Shown here piece by piece: positions 24,184-48,213 of a stretch of 64,000 nucleotides of DNA; position 1 is the first letter of the stretch; the number at the start of each line of letters is the position of its first letter. The notes under the pieces are model-generated. The model made no database searches. It was not told the origin of the DNA and saw nothing but the letters and a program-made list of their open reading frames with translations. The translations under genes were made by a program, and so were the position numbers. Source of the DNA: Branchiostoma lanceolatum (lineage: Eukaryota > Chordata > Leptocardii > Amphioxiformes > Branchiostomatidae). Location of the stretch: NCBI RefSeq assembly GCF_035083965.1, contig NC_089725.1, positions 32,805,524-32,869,523 of the forward strand, given 5' to 3'.

Positions 24184-26737
24184 ATGGTGCACCTGGAAAA
24201 CGAAGCCGTAAGAAATTTGTCATAATTACGTCGATTTTAGCTAATTTGTAGCAATATTGAGATTTTTCTGTACGCAAACGTGATGACTAACATGTTTCCT
24301 TGCCTTGTGTGTTCCCAGTTCCTGAGCGAGCTGACGAGATTGTTCCAGAAGTCGCGCACAGCTGGAGCGGTCTACATCACCATGAAGCAATGTGAGTCCG
24401 CCCCCCTCCCCACCTCCACCCCAGGGCAACCTGTTTACACATGAAATGAAGGGGGTAAAATAACGGGAAGTCTCTTTTCACACTAGAAATTTAAGACTGC
24501 ACACGTCTATGAAGGTGTTGTCTCCAATTTCTTAAGCCGTTTGCGTTATTCTTGATTATAAAAACAGCCACGACTACAACTTGTAGTGGTTTGTTAGTGT
24601 TGTCTTTAGTCAACTTCAAACTGAAGATGTGTTTGAAAATTCCTTTTCCATTTGACTAGCGTAGAGTAGAGCCCGTTTTCACAGATATTTTAGGGGCCTC
24701 TTTATTAGATAGTCATGAACAAACATTGAGTTACACGTGCACGTACATGACATTGTGACAAGTTTGCACAATGCAGCGTAACCGTACGCTACGCTAGAAA
24801 ACATATGGTACGGTGCAGCCCAGTCTGAGGGAAGACAACTCCTCCGAGAACTTGGAATGTTGGAAGTCCAACAGGGATTCATATATGATTCCAGTAGGAA
24901 GGATGATGGTAGCAAAGGTAAAGATAGTCCCACAGCCTTGTAGAAACTGTAGGGGCAGTGGGTTGTTATCAACTGAGTCTTGGGCACGATATTGTGAGGC
25001 CTGGCCCATCCCTCGCTAGCCTGGATGCCAGACCCATAGCATGTGAAGCTATACCTATAAGCCCATTCACTGTTCCGACTACGCATGTGCAGTGTCAAAG
25101 GTGAAGGCCCCTGGCTTGTAAACAGTGCTCGTCTCGACATTGTCTAGATTTGCATAACAACGCCCCGGCGGGTTTTGTTTACGACTCGGGCGCCTTTACC
25201 TTTGACACTGCACATGCGTAGTCGGAACCGTGAATGGGCTTATACATCCCGTTTGCCAGGAGAGCAACACATGTCGGAGTCCCACTCCCAGAGTTGGCAT
25301 TGTACCCTGAGTTATACAGTGAGATAAGGAGGGCGCCCTGGGATTGGGGCATGTTGCTTCCACAGCCAAGGGGATTGATCTAGCCTTGCATGCTATGGGT
25401 CTGCCTTACCCCCTTTCAACTGCCTTTTATAAGTAGCGAAGGTAACCAAAGGTGTTGCCAAGGATCTGCCAGTCCTTCTCAATGAGTGAACTGCAGTTAA
25501 CATCCCAACCTGCCCCAGACCTGGGGGGGGGGGGACTTTCTGGGTTGTTCCTCAGGTGACGGTGCCTTTACTAGCTCAACTTACCACAAAATTACACCTA
25601 ACACCTGATATCTTCTACAGATAACGGACAGATCAAACCCGAATCAACCAAACCAAAGCCAAAGACAGAGGTGGTGACAGAACCAGTGGAACACATGTGT
25701 TTGATAAGGGCCACCAGGGGGAACAAGAAAATCGACACAGTGGTAAGGGACAGTTAAATTCATATGTATCCAAAATCTCTGTACCAGCAACAATCTAGAA
25801 GAAAGTAGTTTGCCACAATATGCAACTGTAATACAATGCTAATTTTTCTTCCAACACTACAGGAAGATTGGAAATAAGTTTAGCATTGTATTATGATTAC
25901 TACCAACACAGATGACCTTCCATGATAATATGCAACTGTTTTTTGTTCATCTGTAATTTGTAAGACTATAATGCATAACTGTCTCAAGGCGTTTCTTCGA
26001 CTTCTACATTTGTTTCACCAACAAATGTTCCAATATAGCAACATCCTTCATCATTGTTTTGATACTGCATGTACATGCACTGGTTTCAGTGAAGTGGCTA
26101 TAGGTATAACAGTTTTTGCATTTTTCTTCTCCTTGCAGATAAAGGCCAAGGATATCAACAAATTTCAAATGGTTGGTTATGATTTATCTCTTAATGTATT
26201 ACAATGGTATAAAACAACATGTTTTGTAACTAGTGCCAAACCAATTCAGTCAAGCAATGGTCTTCTTTTTTAGATACTATATGTAGTAGTAAAAACAAAA
26301 ATGTGGGAGCAGATTTAGAAAAAATGAGAAGATGAAATGTGAAAGAATGTAGGATAGTTTTACTTTTGAAGAAAATGTCCTTGAAAATTTGTGAGAACTT
26401 TCAGTGTTTTAAGGCATTTATAGAGAGGAAGTTGAAGATACAAAGCAGAACTCAGAGTGAAAGTTTTTTTTCTTCAAATTTTTCAAGCAAGCCAACCTCT
26501 CTTGAGGGGCTATTGTTCACCCTGCTTGCCGTGTCTGACATGTGATTACACGTTGATAAGCTCTCCATTCTCTGTTCCAGGCATATTCCTGCTTGCCGTG
26601 TCTGACATGTGATTACACGTTGATAAGCTCTCCATTCTCTGTTCCAGGCATATTCCAACATCATCAAGGCAAACATGGACGGTCTGAAGAAGCGGGACAG
26701 GAAGGCCAAGTCCAAGAAGGCCAAGGCCACCCAGTGA
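24184..26737 (+). CDS. SRP14: Signal recognition particle 14 kDa protein (5 exons)
   Basis: SRP14 binds SRP9 and the Alu domain of SRP RNA in the cytoplasm and is needed for the pause in translation while the ribosome docks on the ER. Exons are 24184-24207, 24319-24391, 25621-25742, 26139-26171 and 26648-26737; all junctions are GT-AG, phases agree, and the stop is TGA. The protein has 113 residues, starting MVHLENEAFLSELTRLFQKS. The core shows AGAVYITMKQY, LIRATRGNKKI, INKFQM and the signature NMDGLKKRDRK near the end. The C-terminus is a short lysine-rich tail; the long alanine-rich tail of primate SRP14 is absent, as in most animals. The acceptor of exon 5 is duplicated upstream (see 26521-26654). 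The promoter is shared with SAE1. Confidence 0.96.
25057..25243. mobile_element. Foldback element with about 55 bp inverted ends
   Basis: ATAAGCCCATTCAC (25057) and GTGAATGGGCTTAT (25243) begin inverted arms that continue through CCGACTACGCATGTGCAGTG and AAAGGT. The loop of about 75 bp is unique. It lies in SRP14 intron 2. No clear target duplication. Confidence 0.75.
26521..26654 (+). repeat. 67 bp tandem duplication across the SRP14 exon 5 acceptor
   Basis: 26521-26587 is repeated without change at 26588-26654. Each copy contains the end of intron 4, the acceptor TCTGTTCCAG, and the first seven bases of exon 5 (GCATATT). Acceptor one is at 26580, acceptor two at 26647. Because 67 is not a multiple of three, only the second acceptor keeps the SRP14 frame. 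Confidence 0.9.
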
Positions 26738-29368: not shown

Positions 29369-32300
29369 ATGCAGTCCAATGGCTCCCCGACCCACAATGG
29401 AGACGCTCAGACAAGCAGTTCCGCTCAAAATGGTGCTGAGCCGGAGCCCTCGGCCTCCTCGAGTAACGGGGTGGAGGTGACACAGGTTGCCGAGGGCTTG
29501 GAGAAGGCCAAGGTAGTGCTCTCCAGGTCCGACGAGGACATCGTGCGGCTGATCGGGCAGCATCTGAACGGCCTCGGCCTGCAGTGAGTAGCGACCCTTC
29601 TCTGTTTTCTGGTCATGTTTCCTCACAGATAATATTCCTTAGCTGATGGCCGGTTTGTGTTGTTCCCATGTTCACAGCCGGACTGCCGAGCTGCTGATGG
29701 CCGAGTCAGGGTGTCGTCTGGAGCATCCCTCGGCGGCCAGGTTCCGCGAGCTGGTCATGGCAGGGGAGTGGGAACAGGTACACAAATGATTTTCGCCAGT
29801 AAAAAAAATGTCGCCGCCATGTTTTTTTGTGTCCCATTTTCTGTGAGAACCCAGCTCGGTTTCCTGGATCTGTCCTGAATGAAATGTGTCACTGATCCGC
29901 CTGGATGTGTTTTCCCCAGGCCGAGGAGGTCCTTTCTGAGTTGAAGTCTTTGCTGGACAAGCCGCAAGCTGCACTGGTAAGAAAGCACAGTGTTCCCACA
30001 TAGAAGGTTTAGCTGTCTAGTGTAGTGTTATTATCTGATCACCATATGATAAATGTTTAGGTGACAGTCCCCTGAAGGGTTGCCTGTGCTCCTGGGACCG
30101 TACAGGTCTGTGATGAATGTTTCTGCACAAAATATCAAGGACAGGAGCACATTTGTTATGCAACAAAATATACCTGCTGAATAAACATCCCCCAGGCAGG
30201 TGGCCCCCACAAAAATCCAGTCAGTACAATTTTGTTTGTTGTTGTGGAAGGTGGCTCTCTGCCTCACACAAAGTGCAGATAGACTCATAAACCCGCCTGT
30301 AGTCTGTGTCCCAGGAACGGCACCTGATGTTATTATAACAATTGATCACCCCGACACCCAAACGTGCCTGCTCACAGGGTGATGCCTTGTGTTAAACTCC
30401 AGACGTGATAAAATTAGATTTCCCCCGAGCGCTGCTGATACTGGTATGAGGACTACATTTGCCTCCAGTATTGGATTTGGCCCCCCTCACATCCCAAACG
30501 TCCGGCCTGCAAGTACAAAATGATGCGGTACAAGCACATTTTAATCGTTTGCGGCGTAGATTCCAATTTTCCCTGTCCCAGTTCTTAAATGAATGCCTCT
30601 CATGCCTGGAAACTGTTTCAGGTTGAGCAGGTAAAGCTGGTTAATGTGAGTTAATCATCAACATTGGATCACTGACCCAGCTGGAACGGGAGGGGGAATG
30701 TTCAGAGCTGAACACGGGGCCAATAAGTCCTGACTAAAGACTGGAAATTGGTGGCCACTGCTGGAAATAAATTTTACCCTCCAGAACATAAACGTTATTG
30801 ATGTTAGGAAAACATGTATTCGAAGCACTCAAGTGCGTCAATTACTCCTAAGGTTTTTCCATATTTCATGACTAAATGCATTAATTTTTGAGATAATGTT
30901 CTGTCGGTGGGACCACAGTTGATAGGTGAGATATCTGAGGATATCTGAAAGATGTGGTCTACGCTTGAAGTAGGATTATGTCGCAGTAGTGTCATGGATA
31001 AGAATCATCGTGGGGGGAAAGACAAAGTGACATTGTCTTGAAGGAGGAAGTATTTTCCTTGAACCTCCTTGGTGTCGGCCATATTTGTCTTCTGCTAGCA
31101 GCTGAGCTTCTTGGACTTATTTGTAAACATTGCATGGCATTGTGGGAAGTGAGTGGTTTATCCACACAGGATCAGCCAGGTCACTTGTTATGGTAATGAG
31201 CACAAACCAAGAACAATTGGTCAGGCAATTTAACTAATTAGTTATTGTAGGAAGGATGGTGCTCCTGGGAATGGAATCAGACTATAATGATTATGTCACC
31301 TAGTTGTCTTGGATTAGAATCACAATCAGGTGTTGGAGCTGTGAATTACACACTTGTTAGAGTAACATACTAGTACTGTAAGCAAATGTTGGCTAAGTTT
31401 GAAGTCTGAAGCATGAAAAAGCACTAAAATTACAGATGTATCTAATGAGAAGAAAAATTAAATTTCTTAATTAAATGTTTGCAAGAATTCTCTCTTGGCC
31501 CAGTTGTTATAATCAAAGATAATTTAAAAGAAAAACATTTGATAAGCTGTGGAGTAGGACTGACCTGTCACTCTTGATCTTCTGTCCAGACTAGGAAGAT
31601 AGATTGACCTTCTTTTTTTTTTTACAGAAGATAGACTGATCCCATAGCCCCACCCACCTCTGTCAAAGTGTAAACATGCAAAATGAGAACATAGAAATAC
31701 AAATATTCAATTGACATGCAGCCACTCTCTCATTTGTCGAACCATGAAGTGGCTGAAATGCTAATTGTGATGGACAGTCAGGATCGATTTGTTGTTGGTT
31801 TTGTTTTGTTTACAGAAGTTGAGGTTTGTTGTTGTTTATGTTTCCAGAAGATGAAGTTCCTGCTGCTGGAGCAGAAGTACCTGGAGTACCTGGAGGACGG
31901 GCAGGTGATCGAGGCGCTCTACTGTCTGAGGAACGAGCTCACGCCGCTCAAGTTCAACACCGAGAGGGTCCACCAGCTCAGCGGGTGAGTGGGCTGGGTG
32001 CCTGGGTCACTGCTATCCGACCCCTGGGTCACTGCTATCCGACCCCTGGGTCACTGCTGTCAGATCCCTGGGTCACTGCTTTCTGACCCATGGGTCACTG
32101 CTGTCTGACACACAGGTCACTGCTGTCTGACCCATGGGTCGCTGCTGTCTGACCCACAGGTCACTGCTGTCTGACCCACAGGTCACTGCTGTCAGATCCC
32201 TGGGTCACTGCTTTCTGACCCATGGGTCACTGCTATCTGACACACAGGTCACTGCTGTCTGACCCATGGGTCGCTGCTGTCTGACCCACAGGTCACTGCT

Positions 32301-35300
32301 GTCTGACCCACAGGTCACTGCTGTTTGACCCCTGGGTCACTGCTGTTTGACCCACGGGTCACTGCTGTCTGATCCGGGGTTATTTTTGGGTTACTGCTAT
32401 CTCACCCTGGGTTATTGTCAGGTCGTTGCTCTCTACCCCCTGGGTTATTGTTAAACTGTGCATGTAACTGTTTCAATAAGCTTTTGCTGTCAACTTGGGC
32501 CATAGAAATTTTGTTTGATGGTTCCTCTGCACTTGAAAATCAATATGAATAGAGTCTGAGGAGAAAGTCTGCACCTTGCGACATAGTTTCAGGGAGTGAG
32601 TATAGTCAGACCCCTTGCTAACATTTTTTTCTACACAATGTCCTTGAGTCTGTGAAGCACGGAGACTAGTTGATGTAGTCATGGTGACAAAGAATACATG
32701 ATGGCTCCCAGCGGCCAGCAGTCCCTGATTGAAAAACTGCCCCAGGAGCCTGCAGACAGGCTAGCTCTAGTCTCCATCAGTCTTCTCTACAGATGGAAGA
32801 GAATTAGCAGAAAATGGCCAAATAGGTTGACTTATTTTCCAGCCCCCAGCAGATCTGTCACTAGTTGTTATTGTTGGCTGAGGGAGGCCAAGGTTGGAGT
32901 GTTGCAGGGTTTGAGTGTTGCAGGGTGTTATTTCCCAGTAAACACTGTAATTATCTCCTGCTGAACTGTTCCTGCAGGCTTCTCAGCAGATATGTTTAGT
33001 CTCTACCAGACTAACAATGCTGGCTGGAAAATTTGGAATTTGGCTAGACTTCTTTGGGTGTAGGGTCAGTAGGAAGAATACATGTAATTTTTCATGACTT
33101 GCATTTAGTGTTTGAATATTTGTATTGTGTACATTTCAATGTGTGGGGCACAATATCAGCATTGCTGCCTGGTGCTGCACAGTGTATTGTTCTATTGTAA
33201 TTTCCATGAAGATTCTTTTCCATGGGAGTTTGTCCACCATAGCTTGGTCCCTGCTGATACAGGCCAATAGACGATGATGACAATAGTAGGGTTTAATTTT
33301 CCTGTACAAGGGAAGATGTTACCGTTGCTGTGGGCTTACTCTCCTGGCCAAGTATTCACCTTATTTCTGCTGAATTCTACCATCCATACCCCCTTAGAAA
33401 GGCCTGGTGGAGGCTAGGTTCTATTAGTATTACCCCTATTCATTTGTGTCTGCTGAACAGTGACTTGTGTCACCATGGGGCAATTACATCATGAACAGGT
33501 CATGGGTCAGGGTCGGCCCTGGTGGAGGCTGATTATAACTGGGAGTAGTTGTTCCGTGATGACAGGCTTTATTTTCTCTTACTGGCCCTGAAGAGCATCA
33601 TTTATCAGTGGGCAAGGACAAAGGCATTTAACTCTTTGGCAGCCTTTAGTGTCTTTTAGCTGCAGTTTGCACCATGTTGGCTGAAAGTGATGCGTGTTGG
33701 ACTACCATGTGCTTTGTCAGCTGCCAGATGAGTTTATGAAACAAAAACCTAACTGCTTTTTACCTCGTTTATTGCGAATGTAAAGCGAGAGTGGCTTCAT
33801 CCTTCCTGATGCCTCGAGAACCAAAAGGCAGGAGAGAGTTGAGTGAGTGAGGTTGGCTTCACTCTTTGCATTCTGATGAAGACTTTCTCGTTAAAAAAAA
33901 AGTTGAACTTCAAGCCGGTAAATGTTGGCCTTTCTCTTTTGCTGTCATCCTTCCGACTTTCATTTGAAAACTCATTTATTGCAAAATTTATGGCAACAAG
34001 ATTCTAATTTCATATGTCAAAATGTCATGTTATAGAGGGTCTTGCACAGAAGCACATATTGTTTACAACCACAGGACTTATATATTTGCTTGTTTGTCTG
34101 TTTGAGTCTGTTATGCATTTGGCATCAGTGTGATCAGGAAGGTTCCATGTCCTGTGTGCCATTTCCAACAGTGTGGATTTTCCAAGGGTTAAGCACAAGT
34201 CCCCTATCATCCATGGCATGCAGGTAGTCTTGGCAATGATGCACCACAGCACAGGTATTCTATAAGCATTAATACTACGAATAGCACCATGCATCATGTA
34301 AAGTTATGGCATAACTTTCCATGGTGCAGAGTGCTATTGGTAGAAGTATTGGGTAAAAGCTGTAATGTTTACGCCTGACTCCCATTCCTGTAGTCATGTT
34401 GAGAGGGCCCTGCTGGTATCTGGTGGGATCTAAATGGAAGCAGGTTTGCCTGGCTGCCTGTGGGAACCTTTAAGCATGTACATTATGGCATTATCTTCCA
34501 TTGCCAGGCTGCTGGGGTAAGTGGCGGGTTGGCAGGATAGTCCGATCAGGGTGCCAACTGTGATGCCAACACTGGAACTCTGCAGCTTTCCTGTATCAGA
34601 TGTGGGGAGATGGTCACACAGCACCAGTGTTTACTCAGTAAGGGGGACACCAGTATTGCACACATGCACGTAGACTTCAAAATCATTATTTGTAAAATAA
34701 CTTTGAAAATCCTTTTTGGTGGGAATTTTGGTGAACTCAGGGGATGGGTCACATCTTAATGTCAGTTCATTGTTTTTTCATGTGGCCTGAATTCCACAGT
34801 GGGGGGGAAAGGAGGTTTTGTACCCTCCTGCAGGTCACAACTGAAATTTTCGCTGAGAAGAGCTCCCGCACGTCGCCTTCCGAAGTCAACTTCATACGCA
34901 AGCGCAGAGACACGGCGCACAGCACTGTGGGAAGGGTCAGCCCCCGATCTCCCCGGTGCAATCCCACGGACTTAGGCCGGAGCACAATCCCGTGCCAATG
35001 ATACGATAGAGTTTGTAATGGACAAATAATTGGCAAACTGAGTATCAATGAAATGATGGAGTTTTTATAACAGTGGAGAATTCGGTGTTTACAAGGTTGC
35101 AACCTTTTTTTAATCATATTTCAGTATTCACACCTAGATGGTTAACATAATTTTTGGCAACACACCTTATTCCTTCATTTGGTATTGTCTTAAGTTTGTT
35201 AGATCAGTAAATGTTCCAACTCTTTGTTCCCAAACTATCTCACCAAGATGGTAAAAATAAAAGCAGAAAACATGAAGATGCTGACAAAATAATTTGGAAA

Positions 35301-38300
35301 GAAAATTTGTGTTCTCCACATTTCTGGCTAACGGCAGATTTGTGATGTTGTAGTTGTTTGGGGACCAGGATGTGTAGATCATCTTGCAGCCATAATTGTT
35401 TGGGGACCAGGCTTTAGATATGAGTAGTAGTAGACTAATACTAATAGTAGTACTGTATCCAGATATTGCAGCCAAAATTGTTTGGTACATGTAGTTGTTT
35501 GGGGACCAGATCATAGATCTGTAAATTGCAAGTTGAGACCAGGCTGTAGATCATGTTGCAGCTGTGTTTGGTTAGTGGCTCCTCCCCTGCCTGCAGGCGT
35601 CACTCTAGTGACTAGCTCAGCAAAAATACGGGCTTTTTTTTGTTCTCTGCAGTGAACATCAAAGTTGGCAGCATTCCCTGGATTAAGTGAAACTGAAATG
35701 TTGGCTAATTGAAAGCACGCTGCTGGCAGGTTATTTGCAGATTAATTACAATCTTTAGACTAGGGCAGCATCAGAGTTCATCCCTGGCTTTGTGACTGTT
35801 CCCTACTGACTCGTTACTGCTTTTGCTTCAGTACAATAATGCATCTTATATGCATGACTTAGTCAGGAAAAATAGTATTCTCTTCTTGGGTTTGATGTTA
35901 GATCGATAAATGTTTTTTACTGGGGATGTCTCAGTCTGAGGATTGTGTTTACCGTGGACTTAGTTAGTGTGATTTTTGTCAAGTTTTAATGTGATTTTGC
36001 TGTACTATAACAAGGGGAATGAGCATTCAACACTTTGTTGTTAAAAACTACATCAGTTTTTTTCAGCATTTTTAGAACAGATGGCCATGTAGATCACAGA
36101 GAAATAGCCTCCCTCTCCCCAGTCATGTGACCAGTGTTTTGGTCTCCCAGCTGATGCCTGGGGATTTAAATATCAGCTGAGCCAGCATTATGCAAATGAG
36201 CTCCCTGGGCAGTGATGGATGTGTGCAGCAGGCTGGGAGGTGGGCTGGGTCTCCAAGCAGATGTTGGGGCGGCTTCCAATCCTTGGCCCAAATGCCAGAC
36301 TGGAAATACAAGATTTGTGAGCTTGTGGAAAAATATATAAGAACTTGTAAAGATGGATGTGTGCAGCAGTCTGGAGGTAGGGCTACGGTCTCCAAGCAGA
36401 TGTCGGGGTAGATCAGGCACAAGATCTGTCAAATACTTGGCCTTATGCCAGCACTGGACATACCCACCTGCATTTTGTAGGGAAATTTTTGAGATAACAA
36501 AAAAATGTATTACAACTTGCAGTTTGGAAAACTAGAAGAATACAGGCTTGGTATTATGGATGAAAAATGACAGAAAACGGAATGAAGTATTTCAGGCCCT
36601 GCATGAGTAGGATACAAGAGGGTAGATTCATTTCTTCCAAGAAAGTGATCGATCATCACCAGGAAAAATTAAGAAAATTTGATCTAGCATTAATAGTAAA
36701 GGGAAATTCTCAAGGATTTGTAAATGTTGTATCATATATTCACACCTGTATGTGTTATATATCACAGGTACATCATGTGTAGACAGTGTTATTTGTTGAC
36801 ACCTATCTGTCGTATATCACATTCACAGGTACATCATGTGCAGTGTTATTTGATGACCCCTGTCTGTTGTATACCACAGGTACATCATGTGCAGTATCAT
36901 ATATTCACACCTGTCTGTGTTGTACTTGTATATCCAGGTAAATCATATATATCCATAATGCAATATGTAATGAATTAGTGTTGTTTACTGTTAATTTCAG
37001 GGACATCATGTGCAGTGTTATATATTGACACCTGTGTGTTTTTGTTTGTTGCAGGTACATCATGTGCAGTGTTATATATTGACACCTGTGTGTTTTTGTT
37101 AATTCCAGGTACATCATGTGCAGTGTTATATATTGACACCTGTGTGTTTTTGTTAATTCCAGGTACATCATGTGCAGTGTTATATATTGACACCTGTGTG
37201 TTTTTGTTTGTTGCAGGTACATCATGTGCAGTGTTATATATTGACACCTGTGTGTTTTTGTTTGTTGCAGGGACATCATGTGCAGTGTTATATATTGACA
37301 CCTGTGTGTTTTTGTTTGTTGCAGGTACATCATGTGCAGTGTTATATATTGACACCTGTGTGTTTTTGTTTGTTGCAGGTACATCATGTGCAGTGTTATA
37401 TATTGACACCTGTGTGTTTTTGTTTGTTCCAGGTACATCATGTGCAGTACTGCAGAAGAACTGCGGGAGCGAGCAGAGTGGGAAGGGAAGGGCCCCAAGT
37501 CTCGGGCCAAGCTCATGGAGAAGCTGCAAGGTGAGGCGGCATCTGTGATACTCAGCCATTTGGTGATACATCCGTAACTCTTCTGTGATACCCAGCCATT
37601 TGGTGATACATCCGTAACTTAGCCTGAACTCAATCAAGCTCCTGTAACGGCTTGCCGCCCTTTAACCGCATAGCCGCCCGCGGGGAGGGGACAGAAATCC
37701 CCGGACAACTGGAGTTTGCGTTATACAGACTATATTCAGCCATTTGGTGATACATCCGTAACTCATCTGTGATACTCAGCCATTTGGTGATACATCCGTA
37801 ACTCTTGGACTTTTAATGACTAGAAGCTGAGTTAGTTTTTATCAGGGTTGTCTCCAACACCCTTCCCTCTGTCCCGGGACACAAATTTGCTTTTTGGGAA
37901 GGAAAAAACGTTCACCCTGTCCATCCAAACAATCAGTCATACAATTGATGAAGATGTATTTATGTAAGCCTAGAATAATCAATTTACCAACCAAAATTGA
38001 TAACATAGGCTCCCGAACAATGAGTGGGACAGGAAAAAAGTTAAAAACTATAGACAGTGCTTAACTTACTATTCTATTGAACCATCTGAAATTGTCTTCA
38101 CTTCATTAACATATCTATTAAGAGTTTTGGTAAAAAAAACTAGTTCTACCAAATCCTTCTTTAGTCACTGCCGAAAGATAGCGGATGCTGTCTGACTGTT
38201 TCAAAATTTTATCCAGTTGCTTGGGTAACTATTTTGGGCGTATCTTATTACCTGGATGTCTAACATTCATCAACGTATAGACAGCGCTGTATGAATGTAT

Positions 38301-41300
38301 AGCGGGAACATATAATTGTTGTTGATAGTCATTCCAGGGAGAGTGATATCTTGTTTTTTGTGGTATGACTCAACCAGTGAAGCCAATTTGTATGTGGCTC
38401 TCTTACATATAATTGGGTTAGTTTAGCCTTGCTAGCTGGAAGACAGCAGATCTTGTAGTCTACTGCAGTATTGGGTTACCTGTGACTCCTGCCTTGTAGA
38501 GCTGTTAGGATCATTGAAATCCCCTTGTGTGGAGAATGAGAGTGATACTGTTGCCAATTGCTGATGAAAAGCTGGAAATGAGAACTTTGAAACTTGAGAA
38601 GGCAGGAAATAGACCTACAAAAGGCCAGAGCGCTTTCTTTCCTGGCTTGAATTGAATATTTGCCACCCTTTCCCATATTGAACCTGTAAATGGTGTCACA
38701 ACTGGTGGAAGAAGAGCTCTTCAGTGAGCTAAAAGAGGATCGAGATCACTTTTCTTTCCTTTTCTAACATACATGCCCCTAACATACAGCATACATGCCC
38801 CCATCCGTGATGCTGCCCCCGCGACGGTTACAGACCCTGCTGTCCCAGGCTATCGAGTTACAGAAGGAGCGCTGTCCCTACCACAACACCAAGAGCGAAG
38901 ACTCCTTACAGAACATGTCCTTGTTACTAGACCATGTATGCAGTAGGTGAGTGGTGTCTGTTCGTTATTAAGTTCCTTTAATAACAAAACAGATTCAAAG
39001 CTATTAGTAATGGATTTATACAATTCATAGTGGTAGGAATGCTTTGCCCAAAGAAGCTAGTGATGAAATTCTGTTGCAATATTTCAGTAAGTGTATTTAT
39101 TTGCTGAGGTTGTGTTTGTATAGATTGTTGTCTTGACATCACTCTGTTGAACCAATTGAAAGAATGACCAGTTTGATGAAAATTGCTTTGGTAAAACTTT
39201 ATTTGGAAATGTTTCTCCCAGGAAAGTGCATTGCTTTATTAATCAGGAAATGTTATGCTACAGTTGTTCGAAGACTTCAAGATGATTTATATTCAGTAAG
39301 AGATAATGACATGTTCTTGTGTCCACAGGAAACAGTTCCCTTGCCGGACAAGACAAATTCTAAGTGAACACTGCGACGAAGTGTGGTTCTGCAAATTTTC
39401 CAATGACGGCACAAAGCTAGCTACAGGTTCCAAAGACTCCACACTCAACATATATGAAGTAAATCAGGCAAGCTGTCCCCTGTCTTCCCTGTGTTTGTGT
39501 TATATTCGGACATGTAGATTAGGTGGTGACCAAAAAGTATGTGGCTCCGAGAACAGGATTCTGTCAGCATTTTGATATTGCCACTTCATTATTGTTATGA
39601 TGATGAATGATTCATTGATTAATTGATTGATTTTTAATGTGCTATATTCTATGTTTTTGTAAAATGACATCAAATGTAATCCTACATAGTGCCTGAAGAT
39701 ACACAAATACTGACACTTCAAGATGTTTAAATGCATATACATTATATACAGTAACTAAATACTATATCAAAATCAAGAAACATGCACAGGATTGCCAGAA
39801 ACCTATTGGGTTTTCTTTGGCCCTTTCTCATTCGCTATTATCTAAAATACAGGCATTAGCCTTGGTGTCAAAATGATCATTCAGAAGTCAACCAAAGTTG
39901 AAGAAACCTTACTATCAGAAAACAATTTTGTTGTTTTATGCCTTGTTTATTATAGTCACAAAGAAGCGAACAGACATGATTAGCTGGGTGAATAAACAAA
40001 TCACTCTGAATTTCAGATGGTTCACTTACATTTTGAAACGATTACAAAAATACATGTCACAAACAGTTGTGTACAATTTGTACAAAGCTATTGAGGCAAT
40101 TGTGCAAAGAAAACCATTGCTTCATCTTATTTCATTGCAACACCCAGCTGTGGAGGACCACAGTCTTAATGATTCTCATCATGAGCAGCTAGCCACTACC
40201 ATTTATAATGCCGTCAACAATTTATGCTTACGTATCATGTTGTTAAAGTTAGGTGGAATATATGTCTGTGTTATTTATTCTGTGTAAGGGGAAATGTGGA
40301 ATAATCTTGAAACTTTTGATCATTGCTACGAAATGTGCAATATTGTGAGTCGTAAAAGTTTTACCTTGTTATTTGTACATTGAATGTAATTCAGTGATCT
40401 CACTGCGAAGTTCAATGAATAAATCTTGAATCTTATGTTGTGACACTGTGCCCCGTTCTGTGTTCCAGATAACCCAAGAAGCCAAGCTGCTACGCACGTT
40501 TGAGGGGCACCAGTACGGGGTGTCCTACCTGTCCTGGAGCCCCGACGATGTTTACCTCATAGCCTGCGGACCAGAGGAGTGCTCCGAACTCTGGGTCTGG
40601 AACGTCCAGGTCAGGGAAAACTCCACCTACAGTATCGTAAACGCAATTAAGTTCCCAGCAATTTAATTTCGCATTAGGGAGAGAATGGAGTGTTTGCAGT
40701 GGTTCGCAGTTGGAACAAGAAGGTAGGCAGGCAGAAGACGAAATAATTTTCTCAGCTTTTTTTAATGTTCGCAATGAAGAGGTTACCATGAAGACTGCAA
40801 ATGTCAAACCACCACAGAAATTTCAACACTGACATTACATTCTTCTAGCAACACACCCTAATGCTGTCTGATGTATGTGTCAGGGTAGAGATTTTGATCT
40901 GGCAGAATCACCGAATCTACCGGTAGTGATCCCGATCAGGATCTCTGTCAATTCCATTCTCTATTAGGCCACACCATTTTAATTTCTTGGTTAACAGAAT
41001 TTTTAAAAAAAGTGCTAGATTGAAAAATCAACAGGAAAACAGAATCTCAGAGGAAAGTTTGTACACAATTTCAGGGAGTGAACAGGGTCAGGTGCAAGTT
41101 TTTACCCCAGCCTTCTGTTTTCATGATTTTTTTTGGTTGCTGAAATTTAAAAAAAAATCCGATATTCCTCATTCACAATGTTTTCTAACTTCAAGATCAA
41201 ATTCAGTGGATCTGTTGGTTGGGGTTCAGTCCCAGCTACTTGGTTGAAAATGTGAGCCGTGACAAAGCCACATTGCACTGCTAGAAAAAGCATCATGCTT

Positions 41301-44300
41301 CGCCTCAGTTGAGGATGACTTCTGTGCTTACTCTCTATTCTCCAAGCAGAGGCTTCGATCGAGAGGGGTAGTTTTGTCCGGGATTTCTATCATCCCTCTC
41401 CTGTCACCTCTGCAAGATATCGAAACGCATCAAGCCTTACAAATCTAATCACTTTGACACATAAAGGTCATTTTGAAAGTAGGTGCTCAGTCTGCCAAGG
41501 GAGTCTAGTGTTCATTGTAGGGGAGACCGCGGGGTGCCCGTGCGGCTGGCTGCACACTGTCCCAAGTTGCCGGATCCGCGTTAATCCCCGGGCAGTAAAA
41601 CTCTTTGCCTAACGAAAAATTTATGGTACACAGGGAGGGGCAGCGACACCGATTCTGAAAGGATAGCCCCTCCCTGATGCGTTATCTTGCAGAGGTGAGA
41701 GGAGAGGGACTTTAGAAATCCCGGACAAAACTACCCCTCTTGATCAAAGCCTCTGCTTGGAGAATACTTACTCGCTAACTGAGGAAGTTTTCTGCGTGTT
41801 CCAGACGGGAGAGCTGAGAGTTAAAGTGAGCCAGTCCCCGGAAGACAGCCTGACGTCGGCGGCCTGGAACATCGACTGTAAGAGGTTTGTCTGTGGGGGC
41901 ACACGAGGACAGTTCTACCAGTGTGTAAGTATGGACAGGGTGTGTGTGTGTGTGTGTTTCTGCATTTGTGTGTTTGTGTGTGTGTGTGTGTGTCTGCGTT
42001 TGTGTGTGTGTCTGTGTTTGTGTGTGTATGGTTATGTGAATTATATGATGTGGACACAGGTCTGCATTTGCATATGTGCATGTTTGTGTGTGTGTGTTTG
42101 CGCGTGTTTGTGTGTTTGTGTTTGCGTGTGTTTGTGTGTGTGTGTGTGTATGTGTGGTTGTGTGTATATGTGATGTGGTCACTTGCGTGTGTGCAGGAGT
42201 GTGTGTGGCATGGGGGGGGGGGGTGTGGTCATGTGCACGTGAATGTACATCTTTAACCATCTTAAACACACCCGCACTTCAAGCCTTTATTTCCTCCCTG
42301 TGTTTTTCAGGACCTCGACGGTAACGTGATGGACTCCTGGGAAGGGGTCAGAGTGCAGTGCCTCCAGTACAAGAAGGACGGAAAGACCGTCCTGGCCTCC
42401 GACACGCACCACAGGATCAGGGGGTACAACTTCGAGGAACTCTCAGACCATAACTTGTAAGTAGACATCTGGGAGAAGTCCTGGAAAACTTTCTACAGCC
42501 TCCACTTTATGATGGAATTAGATTTTCTTCATTTTCATTTTACAAACCACAATCTTTTGATTTTCCCTATTCTACGTTTACAAACTAGCAAAGTATGAAT
42601 GTAGAATTGGGTACAGTTGGGCTGTGTTTGATAGCAATGAGGGTGAATAGATCCCACCATAATTGCTATATTTAGCAAGAAAAGGTAGGTTGTTGTAACA
42701 CTGGTCACTGTGAGTTTGGAAAGATACAGAAACAAATCTGAGTAATCTAAAGGTATTAATGTCTGAATTCATTGTGATACTGGCAGAAACACAAACAGTA
42801 ACACAGCTAAAACTTAACAAATTTTCAAATGCTTTACTGCAGTCTTCTTCAGAATGCAAACAAACAGTTAGCTTGGCAACGTAACCTTACGTGTGGCGTA
42901 GCCATTGTTCAACCGTAGAAGACTGCAGTGGCATCATGTATATGGCTAAGCAAGCTATCAAGGAATAAATGACTTTAACAGTTGAAAGTTCAAGTACCTA
43001 ATGTGTTTAAACAAAGTTTTCGCTGTGTTACTCTGTCAGCTACCAAAGATGAATGCAGATGAACTTTCATACTGAAACGCATTTTTTCAACCGATACATG
43101 AAATCTCATTGTGTAGTCAGTTGAAACAAAAGGTTTCAAACATGATCAGATTTTCCAAATCCTTTGTATCTTTCCAAATTGAAAATGACTTGTGTTTTGG
43201 TGAAGAATAGCTGTTTAGAACTTAAAAACGTTCTAGATAAAATAAAGCAAACAGAAGTTGCAGAAGAAAAGTCTGACATTTTTAGCTGCTTGCCTTGTTC
43301 CCGCGAGCGTCTGAAGCTGTGGTATTTTCACACACAGAGATCCCATGGCTCAAGACCCGTGGATAGTGGACAATAAGTAAGACTCACATCTCCTTAGATA
43401 CATCGTACTTTCATTTTCACGCGTGGTCGACGGCAAAGCTCAAGCCAGGTATTTCTGAGTAGTGTTTACAGTGTTGGTGTTCTAGTGAGGAGCTGTGTAG
43501 ATGTGGCACTGACCAGGCTGTCTCCTGTGTGTTCTATCTTACAGAATAGTGGAAGATCACCCGATCATGTCCTTCAGTGTAGATGACTCGGGCCGGTTAG
43601 CACTTCTGAATGTAGCTACTCAGGTAAGACGACGTCCGTCTTCTCCTTATTGTACAGCCACACTTACCCTCAGGGCTGGAAATACTGGGTGCATGTGCAC
43701 CTGTGTGCACCCAAAATTGGAGCTGTGCACCTAATTTTTGACTGTGGGTGCACCGGTGCACCTAGATATTTTTGTAAGCTACAGGGTAAAGGCACTATTG
43801 TACACTAAGCATACAGAATATTCTTGAAATGTAAGTATCAGAAGTGGCAATATACCGTTTTGTTGTACTTAATTTGATGTATCACTTGTTTGAAATTTTA
43901 AGGTTAGCTATAGAATTACAGATTGAAGTTCTTAAGAGCGTTTTGCTGACATTCCACTTTATTCTATGTGGTGCACCCAATATTCTCTTTGTGCACCAGT
44001 GCACCTATTTCCAAAATAGAATTTCTAGCCCTGCCCTGCCCTACCAAAGGGGCGGAGAGAAAGCGTGTTCTTGAAACTGCTGGGTTTGTGTTATTTGTGG
44101 GGCCTGCAGGACAAGGTTCTGGTTAGGAAGTTCATAATCAGTGGGTTACCATGGTTAGAACAGATGTGTTACTATGATTGACATGTGTTACCATGGTTAC
44201 GACATGTGTTACCATGGTTACTCCAGGGCGTCCACCTGTGGGACCTGCATGACAAGGTCCTGGTGAGGAAGTATCAGGGCGTGACGCAGGGCTTCTACAC

Positions 44301-47300
44301 CATCCACTCCTGCTTCGGAGGAGTCAACCAGGACTTCGTGGCCAGCGGGAGCGAAGGTACAACGCTTTTCCATCATGGACCCAAACCTTAACTCTAATCC
44401 TAAACATTACCCTAACGCTCACCCCAACCATAATCCTAAGCCCTAGCCTAACCATGACTTCGTGGCCAGCGGGAGCAACAGACTTACAGGCAGACTCACT
44501 CAATGCCTTGAACCTAACATTAAAGGAGTCTGTCAGTGTGACTTGTCTTGAATGGGTGTGATTTGTGTGAATGGGTGTGATTTGGGATTATCTGTTGTGT
44601 GTTGATGAAGTGTTTTCATGTCTCTAACTGTTGATAGCCTCCTTCTGACCTTCAAATGTGGCTGTAACTGTCAGCTCATCTTTGGTTTTCAAAATGTTGC
44701 ATTGGCCCTCTAAGAATCTGTCTGTAGCCCTCTATGACCTAATTGGTCACTCTTATGACCTTGTAATTGTTGCTATGGCCTTCTTATTGTCGCTATGACC
44801 TTGAAATCATTGTGTTTGTGCTCAGACAACAAGGTGTACGTGTGGCACCTGAAGCGCGAGCTGCCCATCGCGGTGCTGGCCGGGCACACGCGGACCGTCA
44901 ACTGCGTGACGTGGAACTCGCAGATCCCTGGGCTGCTGGCGTCCGCGTCCGACGACGGCACCGTCAGGCTCTGGGGACCAGCCTCCGCCGAGGACGGTTC
45001 GTTCATTCGTTTGTTTATTTCGTTTATTTCTATTCCCTTTAGTCGTATCAAGACTAATCTTCCAGGGTGCATCAGAATAACATTATAAACATACAGATTG
45101 CAAGATTAAAAGGAAAATACATAATTATAACATAAGATATACAGATTAAAAAACTGTTATTTGTTTGTTTGAACCTTTTTTATTAATGAGAAGCTCAAAT
45201 CGGCCTGCAGGCTGCTTTACGTTGGGGTAACTCCCAGCTCCTGATTGGTTGGCTGTTCCCAGCCACAGTAGATACCATGCTGACTTCGTTTTATTAAGTT
45301 CATGAATTATGCTACTTTTGATACTTAAGATTTCTTTGGCCTTCTTTTTCTGTGACACTGACAGTCCTATTTATGGCAAACTTACAAAAGCATAATTATG
45401 CACCAGAAGTAGATGTTAAAAGGTCTCTGCCTTCAAACAGTCTCCATTTAGAAGTAGAATGTGCTTTTCGTTTATTTTTAGATTTTAGATAGTCAAACCT
45501 TATTGGCACCAAACCCAGCAGTCCTTCCCTCCTAATATGGTGCTTCCCCGCCAGAACCCTGCCCTGGCCCACTCAATTGACCAGTCTGTACCCCCCCTCC
45601 AGTCCAGTCTGTACCCCCCTCCAGACCAGTCTGTACCCCCCCTCCAGACCAGTCTGTACCCCCCTCCAGACCAGTCTGTACCCCCCTCCAGTCCAGTCTG
45701 TACCCCCCTCCAGTCCAGTCTGTACCCCCCTCCAGTCCAGTCTGTACCCCCCTCCAGTCCAGTCTGTACCCCCTCCAGTCCAGTCTGTACCCCCCTCCAG
45801 TCCAGTCTGTACCCCCCTCCAGTCCAGTCTGTACCCCCCTCCAGTCCAGTCTGTACCCCCCTCCAGTCCAGTCTGTACCCCCCTCCAGTCCAGTCTGTAC
45901 CCCCCTCCAGTCCAGTCTGTACCCCCCTCCAGTCCAGTCTGTACCCCCCTCCAGTCCAGTCTGTACCCCCCTCCAGTCCGCACCCTACTCAAAATAGCTA
46001 TGGAACCGGTAACAAAAGACCCCCCTTCCAGCACCCAAGATTGGTTGGCTGTTCCCAGCCGCAGTATACCATGCTGACTCCGTTTTATTAAGTTCATGAA
46101 TTATGCTACTTTTGATACTTAAGATTTCTTTGGCCTTCTTTTTCTGTGACAGTCCTATTTATGGCAAACTTACAAAAGCATGATTATGTGCCAGAAGTAG
46201 ATGTCAAAAGGTCTCTGCCTTCAAATAGTCTCCATTCACAGGGTGCGAAATACCTGGTTGCACGTTGCACAGTGCAACAAGATTTCGGTTGGTGCAAGTT
46301 AATTCCAAACCCAGGTAGCGCAATGTGCAACCTTATATTTTGAGCCAAAGATCTCAATCGGAGCCCTGGAAGCTCACAAAAACGCAGTGTCACTCTCATA
46401 AAATTCGGTAAATCTTCAATTGAAATAAAGAAATCAACACTTTTTCGTTTTAAACCATCCAAACCCTTCATAGATCGTGGAATCTGAGCTGAAAAAGACG
46501 AAAACACACTGCCCTTGGCTAAACAAGATGTTGTTAGGTCAATGGGAACACAATACTATCTAATTTATATTTTGAAATATTAGTAGTATTATACGCTACA
46601 TACGAGCTTGATTTGAAGAAATCGGTGAATGTTGCTGGAGCAACCTTAAAATTTGGATGTGCAACCTAGCCTTTGCCCTAGGTTGCAACATGGGCAACCT
46701 GGCTCAAAAAAGTATTTCGCACCCTGATTCAGAAATAAGATGTGCTTTTAATTTAGTCAAACTCTATTGGCACCAAACCCAGCAGTCCCTCCCTCCTAAT
46801 ATGGTGCTTCCCCTCCAGAACCCTGCCCTGGCCCACTCAATTGACCAGTCTGTACCCCCCCCTCCAGTCCAGTCTGTACCCCCCTCCAGTCCCCACCCTA
46901 CTCAAAGTAGCTATGGAACCAGTAAAAAAAGACCCCCCTTCCAGTACTCAAGGTTTATGTCGCCTCCCTCCCCCTCCCATACTAGATCAAGGGGACTCAA
47001 CTGCATGAGTCGTTCAGTCCTGGCTTTATATCTGGTTTATATTCCCTCCCTTCACCTCCCCCCTTCAGCACCCTGAGTGTTTATATACTCCACACCTAAT
47101 AGGGGACTTAGTCAGGTGCATGCTTTGTTAAGTCCTGGTTTTATGTTCCCTGCCCCACACTAGCGTTTAGGGAAGATGTGCATGTGTTAATTGCAGCTCC
47201 TCTACCCCGCCCCCACCCTCTCTCACACACAGTGTATAGGGGCATCAAGACCGCTGCATGAGTTGTTAAGTCTGGGTTTATGTTCTCTGCTCCTCCCTCC

Positions 47301-48213
47301 CCCCACTACTGTAAGACACTGCATGAGTGTTTATGTTCTCTGCCCCCCTCCCCTGTACTAGTGTAAGACTGCTGCATGAGTTGTTAAGTCAGGGTTTATG
47401 TTCCTCCCCCTCCCCCCCCCCCCACTAGTGTAAAACAGCTGCATGAGTGTTTATGTTCTCCGCCCCCCTCCCCCCCACTAGAGTAAGACCGCTGCATGAG
47501 TTGTTAAGTCTGGGTTTATGTTCTCCGCCCCCCTCCCCCCCACTACTGTAAGACCACTGCATAAGTGTTTATGTTCTCCGCCCCCCTCCCCCCCACTAGA
47601 GTAAGACAGCTGCATGAGTTGTTAAGTCTGGGTTTATGTTTTGCTGTTAGAATCTGACGATCTGCCCTGCCTGTCTCCCCTGGACGGCACAGTCAGGGTC
47701 TCGGAAAAAGACAAATCTGCGGCAGAATCGGGTAGGTGCTGCCAGAAATAACCCGCTAAAGCGTTTTCTTTCCCCTCTCTGTTTGCGGTGGGAAGGAAAA
47801 ACGTGCTTCCACCAGTATTGTTGAGACTTGGTGTGTTTTTTATTGCGTTACCCCATTTTGTGAGCTGTGATTTCTTTTGGGTTTGTATCAAGCAGTTTGA
47901 ACCAATGCCGAAGATTACCTAGTATTGTACACACCTCTAACTTTGAGGCTGTTCGTGTTCGGGCACTTTTGCACTGAAAATTTCACATCAAAAACATAAC
48001 TGCAGTTACAAATTTTGTGAAAGATGACTTACACAAGTTACACCACTATGCAGCCTTACAAAACGTGTGTCCTATATTCGGGTGTTTGCGGTGAAGCTGT
48101 GGTCCTTTTTTGCATATTTGTACACTTCTGTTGAAAGAAAGCCTTTGTCTAAACCATGTTCTCTTGTTGTGTTTTTTGCAGACGACTCGACAGACACGGA
48201 TGACGAAGTATAG
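29369..48213 (+). CDS. WDR26: WD repeat-containing protein 26 (15 coding exons)
   Basis: WDR26 is a substrate-facing, scaffold subunit of the CTLH/GID E3 ubiquitin ligase. Exons: 29369-29583, 29678-29777, 29920-29976, 31848-31984, 37433-37530, 38790-38946, 39329-39467, 40469-40609, 41805-41924, 42311-42456, 43545-43623, 44227-44356, 44826-44996, 47651-47731, 48182-48213. Phases agree throughout and give 600 residues (human 661, the extra being mostly a longer N-terminus). Start: first in-frame ATG, protein [12 protein letters not shown]; human begins MQANG. A LisH motif ([18 protein letters not shown], about 54-71) and CTLH (about 88-160) precede the WD40 propeller (about 262-562), with [48 protein letters not shown] and [17 protein letters not shown]. 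The tail is acidic, ending STDTDDEV. Intron 7 appears to be GC-AG. Introns 4, 5, 8, 9, 11, 12 and 13 carry repeats or elements near their splice sites. Confidence 0.96.
31637..31785. repeat. Second copy of the dispersed repeat of 21478-21690
   Basis: CCCATAGCCCCACCCACCTC, AGCCACTCTCTCATT and GTGATGGACAGTCAG occur in the same order as in the SAE1 intron copy, without the microsatellite. It ends about 60 bp before WDR26 exon 4 (31848). Confidence 0.65.
31998..32420 (+). repeat. Minisatellite, about 21 bp unit, near the donor of WDR26 intron 4
   Basis: About 20 units of the type CTGGGTCACTGCTGTCTGAC start roughly 15 bp after the donor (31985) and decay towards 32420. A higher-order repeat is visible: 32060-32170 is largely repeated at 32190-32310. 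The array does not seem to include exon 4 sequence. Confidence 0.85.
32421..36215. other. Body of WDR26 intron 4, no nested gene recognised
   Basis: Mostly unique sequence. At 35340-35520 the phrase GTTTGGGGACCAG recurs four times in a degenerate repeat. At 34830-35010 there is a GC-rich patch with an 85-codon frame (34744-35001) that I could not link to any protein. No SINE boxes were found here. Confidence 0.4.
36216..36500. repeat. Diverged tandem duplication carrying CTCCAAGCAGATGT
   Basis: GATGGATGTGTGCAGCAG starts two units at 36216 and 36352. Both contain TCTCCAAGCAGATGTYGGGG followed by similar sequence around ATGCCAG and AAATAC. The unit is about 136 bp and has diverged by roughly a quarter. 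Confidence 0.6.
36722..37448 (+). repeat. Array of 54 bp units copying the WDR26 exon 5 acceptor
   Basis: Eight upstream units place an exon-like start at 37001, 37055, 37109, 37163, 37217, 37271, 37325 and 37379, exactly 54 bp apart; the true exon 5 starts at 37433. Each unit has a T-rich tract, CAG, then GTACATCATGTGCAGT (GGACATC in the first), the same bases that begin exon 5. Four older, diverged copies with acceptor-like CAG|GTA lie at 36768, 36829, 36880 and 36938. If a decoy acceptor is used, the WDR26 frame reads about eight residues (YIMCSVIY) and stops at TGA. Long open frames in other phases come from the 54 bp period and are not genes. Confidence 0.95.
37541..37805 (+). repeat. 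42 bp tandem repeat just after WDR26 exon 5, split by an insertion
   Basis: CAGCCATTTGGTGATACATC recurs four times, with CCGTAACTC.TCTGTGATAC between. The array starts about 10 bp after the donor at 37531. A 113 bp element (37620-37732) sits between copies two and three. Confidence 0.85.
37620..37732 (-). mobile_element. Second copy of the 108-113 bp interspersed element
   Basis: The complement of this stretch matches 10686-10793, from GTCTGTATAACGCAAACTCC to GAGTTCAGGCTA, with small differences. It interrupts the 42 bp tandem repeat. Confidence 0.75.
38701..38801 (+). repeat. SINE tail fragment and duplicated boundary at WDR26 exon 6
   Basis: 38701-38765 matches the tail of the SINE at 17645-17910 (GAGCTCTTCAGTGAGCTAAA and ATCGAGATCACTTTTC); no head is present. 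Its pyrimidine-rich end forms the polypyrimidine tract of the exon 6 acceptor. The first 12 bases of exon 6, CATACATGCCCC (38790-38801), also occur at 38768-38779 inside the intron. Confidence 0.7.
41336..41766. mobile_element. 431 bp inverted-repeat element next to WDR26 exon 9
   Basis: The ends are TATTCTCCAAGCAGAGGC and its complement. Inverted similarity continues for about 60 bp (GGGGTAGTTTTGTCCGGGA). CTTACTCTC (41327-41335) and CTTACTCGC (41767-41775) are a 9 bp target duplication with one change. The inner part matches, in reverse orientation, 18420-18590 and 20750-20870 of the 2.6 kb element, so it is a shorter relative. The element ends 38 bp before exon 9. Confidence 0.85.
41938..42240 (+). 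repeat. GT-rich microsatellite near the donor of WDR26 intron 9
   Basis: Degenerate (GT)n with GTTT and GCGT variants begins about 14 bp after the donor at 41925. Long open frames on both strands here are low-complexity artefacts. Confidence 0.85.
43671..44033. mobile_element. hAT-like non-autonomous element, 363 bp
   Basis: The ends are CAGGGCTGGAAAT and the complement of CAGGGCTAGAAAT, typical of hAT transposons. Inside, GTGCACC blocks are arranged as inverted repeats on both sides. No clean target duplication remains. It begins 47 bp after the donor of WDR26 exon 11. Confidence 0.75.
44096..44478 (+). repeat. Fragments of WDR26 exon 12 copied into both neighbouring introns
   Basis: 44096-44131 in intron 11 matches exon 12 positions 44237-44272 at 32 of 36 bases. 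Between them GTGTTACCATGGTTA is repeated about four times up to the acceptor. In intron 12, 44456-44476 is identical over 21 bases to the end of exon 12 (44332-44352). The copies lack their own splice context and are not usable exons. Confidence 0.85.
45158..45240 (-). repeat. Possible LINE 3' end fragment
   Basis: GTTTGTTTGAACCTTTTTTA and then AAATCGGCCTGCAGGCTGC resemble the 3' UTR and tail of the LINE at 1147-1260 (AATCGGCCCTCAGGGCCGC). It is short and diverged. It sits in WDR26 intron 13. Confidence 0.35.
45237..46955 (+). repeat. Tandem segmental duplication of about 800 bp with unequal minisatellites
   Basis: Copy A (about 45237-46042) and copy B (about 46043-46955) share GATTGGTTGGCTGTTCCCAG, TATGGCAAACTTACAAAAGC, CCTCCTAATATGGTGCTTCC and CACTCAATTGACCAGTCTGT in order. 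The 21 bp minisatellite (CTCCAGTCCAGTCTGTACCC) has about 19 units in A (45580-45980) but only two in B (46850-46900). Copy B alone contains a hAT-like insertion (46239-46726). All lies in WDR26 intron 13. Confidence 0.9.
46239..46726. mobile_element. hAT-like non-autonomous element with 5 bp target duplication
   Basis: The ends are perfect inverted repeats CAGGGTGCGAAATAC / GTATTTCGCACCCTG, flanked by ATTCA on both sides (46234-46238 and 46727-46731). The empty site can be read in duplicate copy A near 45450. GTTGCAC and TGCAACC motifs repeat near both ends. There is no transposase. Confidence 0.85.
46975..47645 (+). repeat. Degenerate tandem repeat running up to WDR26 exon 14
   Basis: Units of about 60-65 bp with GCTGCATGAGTTGTTAAGTC, GGGTTTATGTTCTC and a C-rich run (CCGCCCCCCTCCCCCC) repeat about ten times. 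The last unit ends at the acceptor TTGCTGTTAG (47650). The final unit supplies the polypyrimidine tract. Confidence 0.85.

What the first reader, a model, noticed from the sequence alone, without database searches (positions are those of the whole stretch)
36722..37448. Eight in-register decoy acceptors in front of WDR26 exon 5
The 54 bp unit contains T-rich tract, CAG and the first 16 or so bases of exon 5, and repeats eight times before the true exon with exact spacing; four older copies lie further upstream. Each unit also reads CAG|GTACAT, so each is an acceptor and a donor-like site at one point, as in recursive (ratchet) splicing. Use of any decoy adds the same short peptide and a TGA. 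The array could act as a length-dependent splicing rheostat or nonsense-mediated decay switch for WDR26, and copy number should vary between individuals. Alternatively the splicing machinery ignores all but the last copy.
Basis: partly seen in the sequence, partly recalled or inferred. Interest (0 to 1): 0.88.

Follow-up and report, generated by a model that had tools for sequence, protein, structure and literature searches.

The report
Mirage minisatellite at WDR26 exon 5
In a lancelet (amphioxus) gene, a 54-base piece spanning the start of an exon has been copied eight times in front of the real exon; it fits a repeat type already described in lancelets as "mirages", and nothing here shows that it acts as a splicing switch.

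Summary
The array is real. Nine acceptors lie exactly 54 bp apart (first exon bases 37001 to 37433), with four older copies upstream. The last is the true acceptor of WDR26 coding exon 5. Seven of eight decoys carry a complete 3' splice site (branch-point-like TTGAC at -27, pyrimidine tract, AG, 16 exonic bases); the copy at 37001 shares only the AG/exon end. Two corrections: decoys 37001 and 37271 read CAG|GGACAT, so they are not donor-like and encode GDIMCSVIY*, not GYIMCSVIY*.

The host is amphioxus: the nearest listed WDR26 protein is Branchiostoma, 96% identical. [quoted passage not shown] The globin paper says RT-PCR suggests no interference with splicing and shows haplotypes of different length. 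The same window holds an exact 67-bp mirage at the last SRP14 exon and weaker traces at WDR26 exons 4 and 12. Repeats are not enriched at junctions (2 of 53, against 12.9% of random genic positions).

Best reading: a near-neutral minisatellite that happened to include a splice site. The rheostat/NMD-switch idea is untested and possible (human ABCA7 VNTR is a partial precedent) but unlikely. The ratchet is disfavoured.

The parts
36998..37448 (+). 54-bp tandem array: 8 decoy acceptors plus the true acceptor; unit = 16 exonic bases + 38 intronic bases
   Evidence: TRF; repeat families; unit comparison
36729..36953 (+). older degenerate copies (AG followed by exon-5-like sequence at 36768, 36829, 36880, 36938), 61, 51 and 58 bp apart
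   Evidence: TRF (36729-36918, 57 bp, 74% matches)
37433..37530 (+). true WDR26 coding exon 5 (98 nt), acceptor CCAG|GTACAT, donor AAG|GTGAGG
   Evidence: PWM
31985..37432 (+). WDR26 intron 4 (5448 bp, the longest of 15 introns in the reading frame)
29369..48213 (+). WDR26 coding region, 16 coding exons
   Evidence: homologue P0001
26521..26656 (+). second mirage in the window: exact 67-bp duplication spanning the acceptor of the last SRP14 exon (true exon starts 26648)
31794..31858 (+). weak single duplication (32 bp) spanning the WDR26 exon 4 acceptor (31848)
   Evidence: TRF; local alignment only marginal
44096..44134 (+). degenerate 39-nt intronic copy of part of WDR26 exon 12 (44237-44276)
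   Evidence: score 53 against a maximum of 25 in 300 shuffles

Best explanation
This is an amphioxus 'mirage' minisatellite. A segment made of the end of intron 4 (branch-point-like motif, pyrimidine tract, AG) and the first 16 nt of exon 5 was tandemly duplicated and then re-expanded by slippage or unequal exchange, leaving an older decayed array and a young 54-bp array. Copies accumulate on the intron side, so the true exon is untouched. Inferred, not shown: the spliceosome uses mainly the last copy, because it alone is joined to the rest of exon 5 and its strong donor and because its acceptor is slightly the best in the intron. Leakage to a young decoy puts a TGA at nt 26-28 of the added sequence and would be removed by nonsense-mediated decay, so a modest leak would be nearly neutral. 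Shown here: array, gene structure, splice-signal scores, in-frame stops, no detectable enrichment at junctions. Inferred: duplication mechanism, splicing outcome, neutrality.
For: Array and exon. Host: best of the 120 listed WDR26 homologues is Branchiostoma floridae x B. japonicum, 96% identity over 100% of the query; the other listed rows are at 74% or less. Its protein reads [15 protein letters not shown] across the exon 4/5 junction, with no decoy peptide. Definition of mirages, RT-PCR suggesting regular splicing, haplotypes with 6 and 3 units, somatic instability at Adh3: PMC3087553, section 16 read in full; PGBD5, Adh and TnC mirages: PMC3902484, passages. Other boundary repeats in the same window: SRP14 last exon, 49 of 49 aligned nt identical; exon 12 copy. 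No enrichment: 2 of 53 junctions with a local repeat score of 20 or more of 40, against 386 of 3000 genic and 381 of 4000 window positions; by TRF, 3 of 53 junctions inside an array against 8.5% of genic positions, p 0.62. The true acceptor scores 14.04; the best of the other 335 AGs in intron 4 scores 12.84.
Against: No RNA data for this gene could be examined. All three TRF hits among junctions are acceptors (3 of 27, against 0 of 26 donors), a number too small to judge. Five of 8 decoys score only 1.2-1.3 bits below the true site, and 7 of 8 exceed the median true acceptor (8.1 bits), so why they would be ignored is not explained by sequence alone. P0001 is labelled isoform X2, probably an automated prediction, and decoy products would in any case be NMD targets and missing from protein sets. 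In PGBD5 the effect of the repeats on the mRNA was not settled by transcript data: a gene model takes repeats as an exon, and the authors excluded it without cDNA.
Confidence: 0.88

Rival explanations
1. Copy-number-dependent splicing rheostat: decoys compete with the true acceptor; each use adds [13 protein letters not shown], the mRNA is destroyed by NMD, and WDR26 output falls with copy number.
For: 7 of 8 decoys score above the median of 27 true acceptors in the window; every young decoy leads to an in-frame TGA. Human partial precedent: ABCA7 intronic VNTR length tracks exon skipping and expression (PMC5954066, passages).
Against: Published amphioxus mirages are said not to disturb splicing. 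The same repeat type is found at an unrelated gene in the window. In ABCA7 the length-dependent event was exon skipping, while retention of a single repeat unit through its own donor did not change with length. No evidence of selection for the array was obtained here; no other species or allele could be compared.
Confidence: 0.07
2. Ratchet (recursive) splicing: decoys act as AG|GT ratchet points that remove intron 4 stepwise without trace in the mRNA.
For: 6 of 8 young decoys and all 4 older ones have AG|GT; CAG|GTACAT scores 7.25 bits in a donor matrix from 26 donors, and WDR26 exon 2 itself uses CAG|GTACAC. [quoted passage not shown]
Against: 2 of 8 decoys read AG|GG. After joining to exon 4 the regenerated donor is CGG|GTACAT (6.09 bits), weaker than the next unit's CAG|GTACAT (7.25) and the exon 5 donor (10.55), whereas PMC8605326 (abstract and passages) reports that donor competition decides recursion in Drosophila. 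A 54-nt step would leave only about 27 nt between donor and branch-point-like A.
Confidence: 0.02
3. Assembly artefact: true copy number differs or the array was expanded in assembly.
For: Near-identical tandem units are hard to assemble; one globin mirage appeared aberrantly assembled in the B. floridae draft (PMC3087553, supplementary legend seen), and PGBD5 repeat numbers differ between assemblies.
Against: Units are marked by variants (TTAATTCCAG at 37109 and 37163, GGACAT at 37001 and 37271, GTTCCAG at 37433), and an older diverged array flanks them.
Confidence: 0.03

Closest known systems
Amphioxus 'mirage' minisatellites (Adh3; globins BflGb6 and BflGb9; TnC; PGBD5)
   Same: Tandem repeat whose unit spans an intron/exon boundary, upstream copies intronic, AG/GT signals in many units, homogenised middle units, same animal group.
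   Different: Another gene; 54-bp unit (BflGb6 150-160 bp, BflGb9 157 bp, Adh3 10-72 bp as stated in PMC3087553); eight regular decoys; an older decayed array beside the young one.
Human ABCA7 intron 18 VNTR
   Same: Intronic VNTR whose 25-bp unit carries a splice signal; length correlates with splicing and expression (passages).
   Different: The unit carries a donor, not an acceptor with exon start; the length-dependent effect is exon 19 skipping; a different gene and unit.
Drosophila recursive-splicing ratchet points
   Same: Juxtaposed acceptor and donor-like AG|GT in 6 of 8 decoys.
   Different: Ratchet points are described as abundant in long Drosophila introns, with outcome set by donor competition; here a 5.4-kb intron, weak regenerated donor, tandem array, 2 of 8 decoys without GT.

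Membership tests
Amphioxus mirage minisatellite | Tandem repeat unit spanning an intron/exon boundary | tested here: met
   38 intronic + 16 exonic bases per unit
Amphioxus mirage minisatellite | Cephalochordate host | tested here: met
   WDR26 96% identical to Branchiostoma; the other 119 listed rows at 74% or less, (one protein, species not resolved)
Amphioxus mirage minisatellite | Concerted middle units, distinct edge copies | tested here: met
   copies 37055, 37217, 37325 and 37379 identical over 54 nt; left edge 37001 differs at 21, right edge 37433 at only 1
Amphioxus mirage minisatellite | Normal mRNA despite decoys | not testable with these tools
   no RNA data; protein P0001 has the normal exon 4/5 junction
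Amphioxus mirage minisatellite | Length polymorphism between alleles | not testable with these tools
   no genome or second haplotype held
Recursive splicing ratchet point | AG|GT at each site | tested here: not met
   met by 6 of 8 young decoys; 2 read AG|GG
Recursive splicing ratchet point | Regenerated donor outcompetes the downstream donor | tested here: not met
   CGG|GTACAT 6.09 against CAG|GTACAT 7.25 and AAG|GTGAGG 10.55, (small matrix of 26 donors that includes the exon 5 donor; 10.01 when left out)
VNTR splicing rheostat (ABCA7-like) | Isoform ratio changes with copy number | not testable with these tools
   no alleles or RNA available

The most novel reading that the evidence does not exclude
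The array is a natural dose-setting device: each extra 54-bp unit adds one complete competing 3' splice site that leads to an NMD-targeted transcript, so WDR26 level falls stepwise with copy number, and germline or somatic copy changes give allelic or mosaic variation in the dose of this ubiquitin-ligase subunit.
Probability: 0.06. Interest if true: 0.75.

Novelty: new member of a known kind. Interest (0 to 1): 0.33.

Why it matters
Eight decoy 3' splice sites in a row, seven of them complete and nearly identical, before a real exon are a ready-made natural test of how the spliceosome picks one among nearly equal acceptors. Several such loci are in print for amphioxus, and this 64-kb window holds a second exact one at SRP14. 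Comparing alleles of different length with nascent and NMD-inhibited RNA would measure decoy leakage per copy and test the published idea that mirages seed new introns. As a single locus it changes no current view.

Tried and rejected
A WDR26-specific device was rejected as first choice after the repeat type was found in print for amphioxus and at another boundary in the window.

Enrichment of arrays at splice junctions was tested and not found. Limits: 53 junctions from three genes; the random genic positions include the array under study and other arrays of the same introns; the 33 TRF intervals were merged by hand from the 50 rows. An earlier run (47 junctions) contained one wrong junction (exon 7 donor taken as a GC donor) and lacked exons 10b, 14 and 15 and the exon 13 donor; it is superseded, and gave the same answer (2 of 47). 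The SRP14 first exon was not located, so its donor is missing from the count.

First matrix run (24 acceptors): the true exon 5 acceptor was the best of 24. In the rerun with 27 it is second, after exon 15 (14.82). Both runs place it first among 336 AGs of intron 4. Isolated AGs outside the array (35653, 12.56; 35597, 11.33) score nearly as high as the decoys, so score alone does not predict use. Donor matrices include the WDR26 exon 2 and 12 donors, which flatter GTACAN; left out of its own training, exon 2 scores only 1.7.

Selection on the exonic part of the older copies: identity 56 of 64 exonic against 112 of 163 intronic columns (Fisher p 0.004). Rejected as evidence for function, because the reference exon is itself constrained while the reference intron is not, and gapped alignment of T-rich DNA is soft.

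The exon 4 duplication is only marginal by local alignment (28 against a maximum of 27 in 300 shuffles, and the aligned part is the T-rich tract), although TRF lists it.

The young unit was not found in viral contigs (exact 32-base pattern), as expected.

Literature: ten searches were answered. None used WDR26 as a term, so I make no claim that a WDR26 mirage is absent from print. Listings only were seen, apart from PMC3087553 (section 16 in full, other passages), PMC3902484, PMC5954066 and PMC8605326 (passages). Most subscription papers are not held. The original Adh paper (Nucleic Acids Res 2002, PMC117041) is not held and is known here only through citing passages.

Full report
What is there. 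The window holds a 54-bp tandem array at 36998-37448 (8.4 copies, 97% matches) that ends inside a coding exon. The motif CAGG[TG]ACATCATG occurs 12 times in the window, only here: at 36765, 36826 and 36877, and then nine times at exact 54-bp steps from 36998 to 37430. A thirteenth, more decayed copy (CAGGTAAATCATATA) has its first exon-like base at 36938. The last copy is the acceptor of a 98-nt exon whose translation matches the WDR26 chain of PDB 8qbn (E 6.4e-9). Following the gene through the window gives 16 coding exons, 29369-48213, and a 610-residue protein without internal stop. Intron 4, which contains the array, is 5448 bp and the longest of the 15 introns.

The unit. Each complete unit has 16 exonic bases (GTACATCATGTGCAGT) and 38 intronic bases with TTGAC at -27, a T-rich tract and CAG. 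Four decoys (37055, 37217, 37325, 37379) are identical over 54 nt. 37109 and 37163 are identical to each other and differ from those at 3 positions. 37271 differs at 1, the true copy at 1, and the leftmost decoy 37001 at 21, all but one of these in its intronic part. So seven of the eight decoys are complete 3' splice-site modules, and the eighth shares only the AG and exon start. Decoys 37001 and 37271 read CAG|GGACAT and cannot serve as GT donors. Spliced to exon 4, six decoys give ...[14 protein letters not shown] and those two ...[14 protein letters not shown]; the four older copies give other peptides, all ending in a stop.

The host. The WDR26 protein joined from the window's exons (563 aa used as query) has as its best match a Branchiostoma floridae x B. 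japonicum protein (96% identity, full coverage). The other 119 listed rows are at 74% identity or less (984 proteins below 1e-50 among 7995 scored candidates, 120 listed). The window is therefore amphioxus or a very close cephalochordate; the exact species was not determined. The Branchiostoma record reads [15 protein letters not shown] across the exon 4/5 junction.

What it is. PMC3087553 (section 16 read in full) describes minisatellite-like tandem duplications of the end of an intron and the start of the next exon in amphioxus globin genes. It uses the name mirages given for the Adh3 gene, notes AG/GT signals in many but not all units, says that Adh3 data and the authors' RT-PCR suggest no interference with regular splicing, reports 6 and 3 units in two haplotypes of BflGb6, and describes homogenised middle units with distinct edge copies. 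PMC3902484 (passages) adds TnC and PGBD5; for PGBD5 the splicing outcome was argued, not shown by cDNA. The WDR26 array meets the structural features of mirages tested here; normal splicing and length polymorphism could not be tested.

Is it special to WDR26? The same window has an exact duplication of 67 bp spanning the acceptor of the last SRP14 exon (49 of 49 aligned nt identical), a decayed 39-nt copy of part of WDR26 exon 12 in the intron before it (score 53 against a maximum of 25 in 300 shuffles), and a marginal duplication at exon 4. Fifty-three junctions of WDR26, SRP14 and SAE1 (27 acceptors, 26 donors) were compared with random positions: 2 of 53 have a nearby copy scoring 20 or more of 40, against 386 of 3000 genic and 381 of 4000 window positions. 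By TRF, 3 of 53 lie inside an array, against 8.5% of genic positions (p 0.62). Arrays are thus not more frequent at junctions than elsewhere, which fits chance inclusion of a splice site by a general repeat process. With 53 junctions only a strong enrichment could have been seen, and all three TRF hits are acceptors.

How it most likely works. In a position matrix from the window's own acceptors the true site scores 14.04, above each of the other 335 AGs of intron 4. Five decoys score 12.78-12.84, two 10.3 and one 7.6; seven of eight exceed the median true acceptor, 8.1. Sequence alone therefore gives the last copy only a small lead over the five best decoys, due mainly to C instead of G at -4. 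I infer that exon definition through the strong exon 5 donor (AAG|GTGAGG, 10.55) settles the choice, and that leakage to decoys is removed by NMD, since many junctions follow the TGA. This step rests on general knowledge and on what is reported for other mirages, not on data for WDR26.

Ratchet idea. After joining to exon 4 a decoy donor would read CGG|GTACAT (6.09), weaker than the next unit's CAG|GTACAT (7.25) and the exon 5 donor (10.55). PMC8605326 (abstract and passages) reports that donor competition decides recursion in Drosophila. Together with two GT-less decoys and 54-nt steps, this makes a ratchet unlikely, but not excluded for longer steps; [quoted passage not shown]

Rheostat idea. 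It is not excluded. A human intronic VNTR (ABCA7; PMC5954066 passages) shows length-dependent splicing, though by exon skipping, while retention of one unit through its own donor did not vary with length. For WDR26 it needs RNA from alleles of different length.

Verdict. A real, well-read observation with a few factual slips (two decoys without GT, one incomplete unit, peptide not identical in all); a new member of a known kind.

Noticed in passing
26521-26656: Exact 67-bp duplication spanning the acceptor of the last SRP14 exon: a second mirage with an identical decoy acceptor.
   Followed up: yes
47247-47640: 118-bp array (3.3 copies) ends in front of the WDR26 exon 14 acceptor (47651). At least ten other AGs of intron 13 score above the true acceptor (7.9-9.5 against 5.9 bits).
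   Followed up: partly
32001-32451: 22/66-bp minisatellite starting about 16 nt downstream of the WDR26 exon 4 donor, with repeated CACAGGTCAC.
   Followed up: no
52868-53595: Large CAGGTACAACACCAGAA-type array, open in one + frame for 242 codons, with CAGGT in most units; gene context unknown.
   Followed up: no
43338-43376: 39-nt WDR26 exon ([13 protein letters not shown]), present in the Branchiostoma isoform X2 protein and absent from the human probe, which was typed from recall.
   Followed up: partly
1424-2242 (-): ORF resembling the reverse transcriptase of a non-LTR retrotransposon (judged by eye, not searched).
   Followed up: no
23754-23937: 63-bp array (2.9 copies) just upstream of the SAE1 start codon (SAE1 on the - strand).
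   Followed up: no
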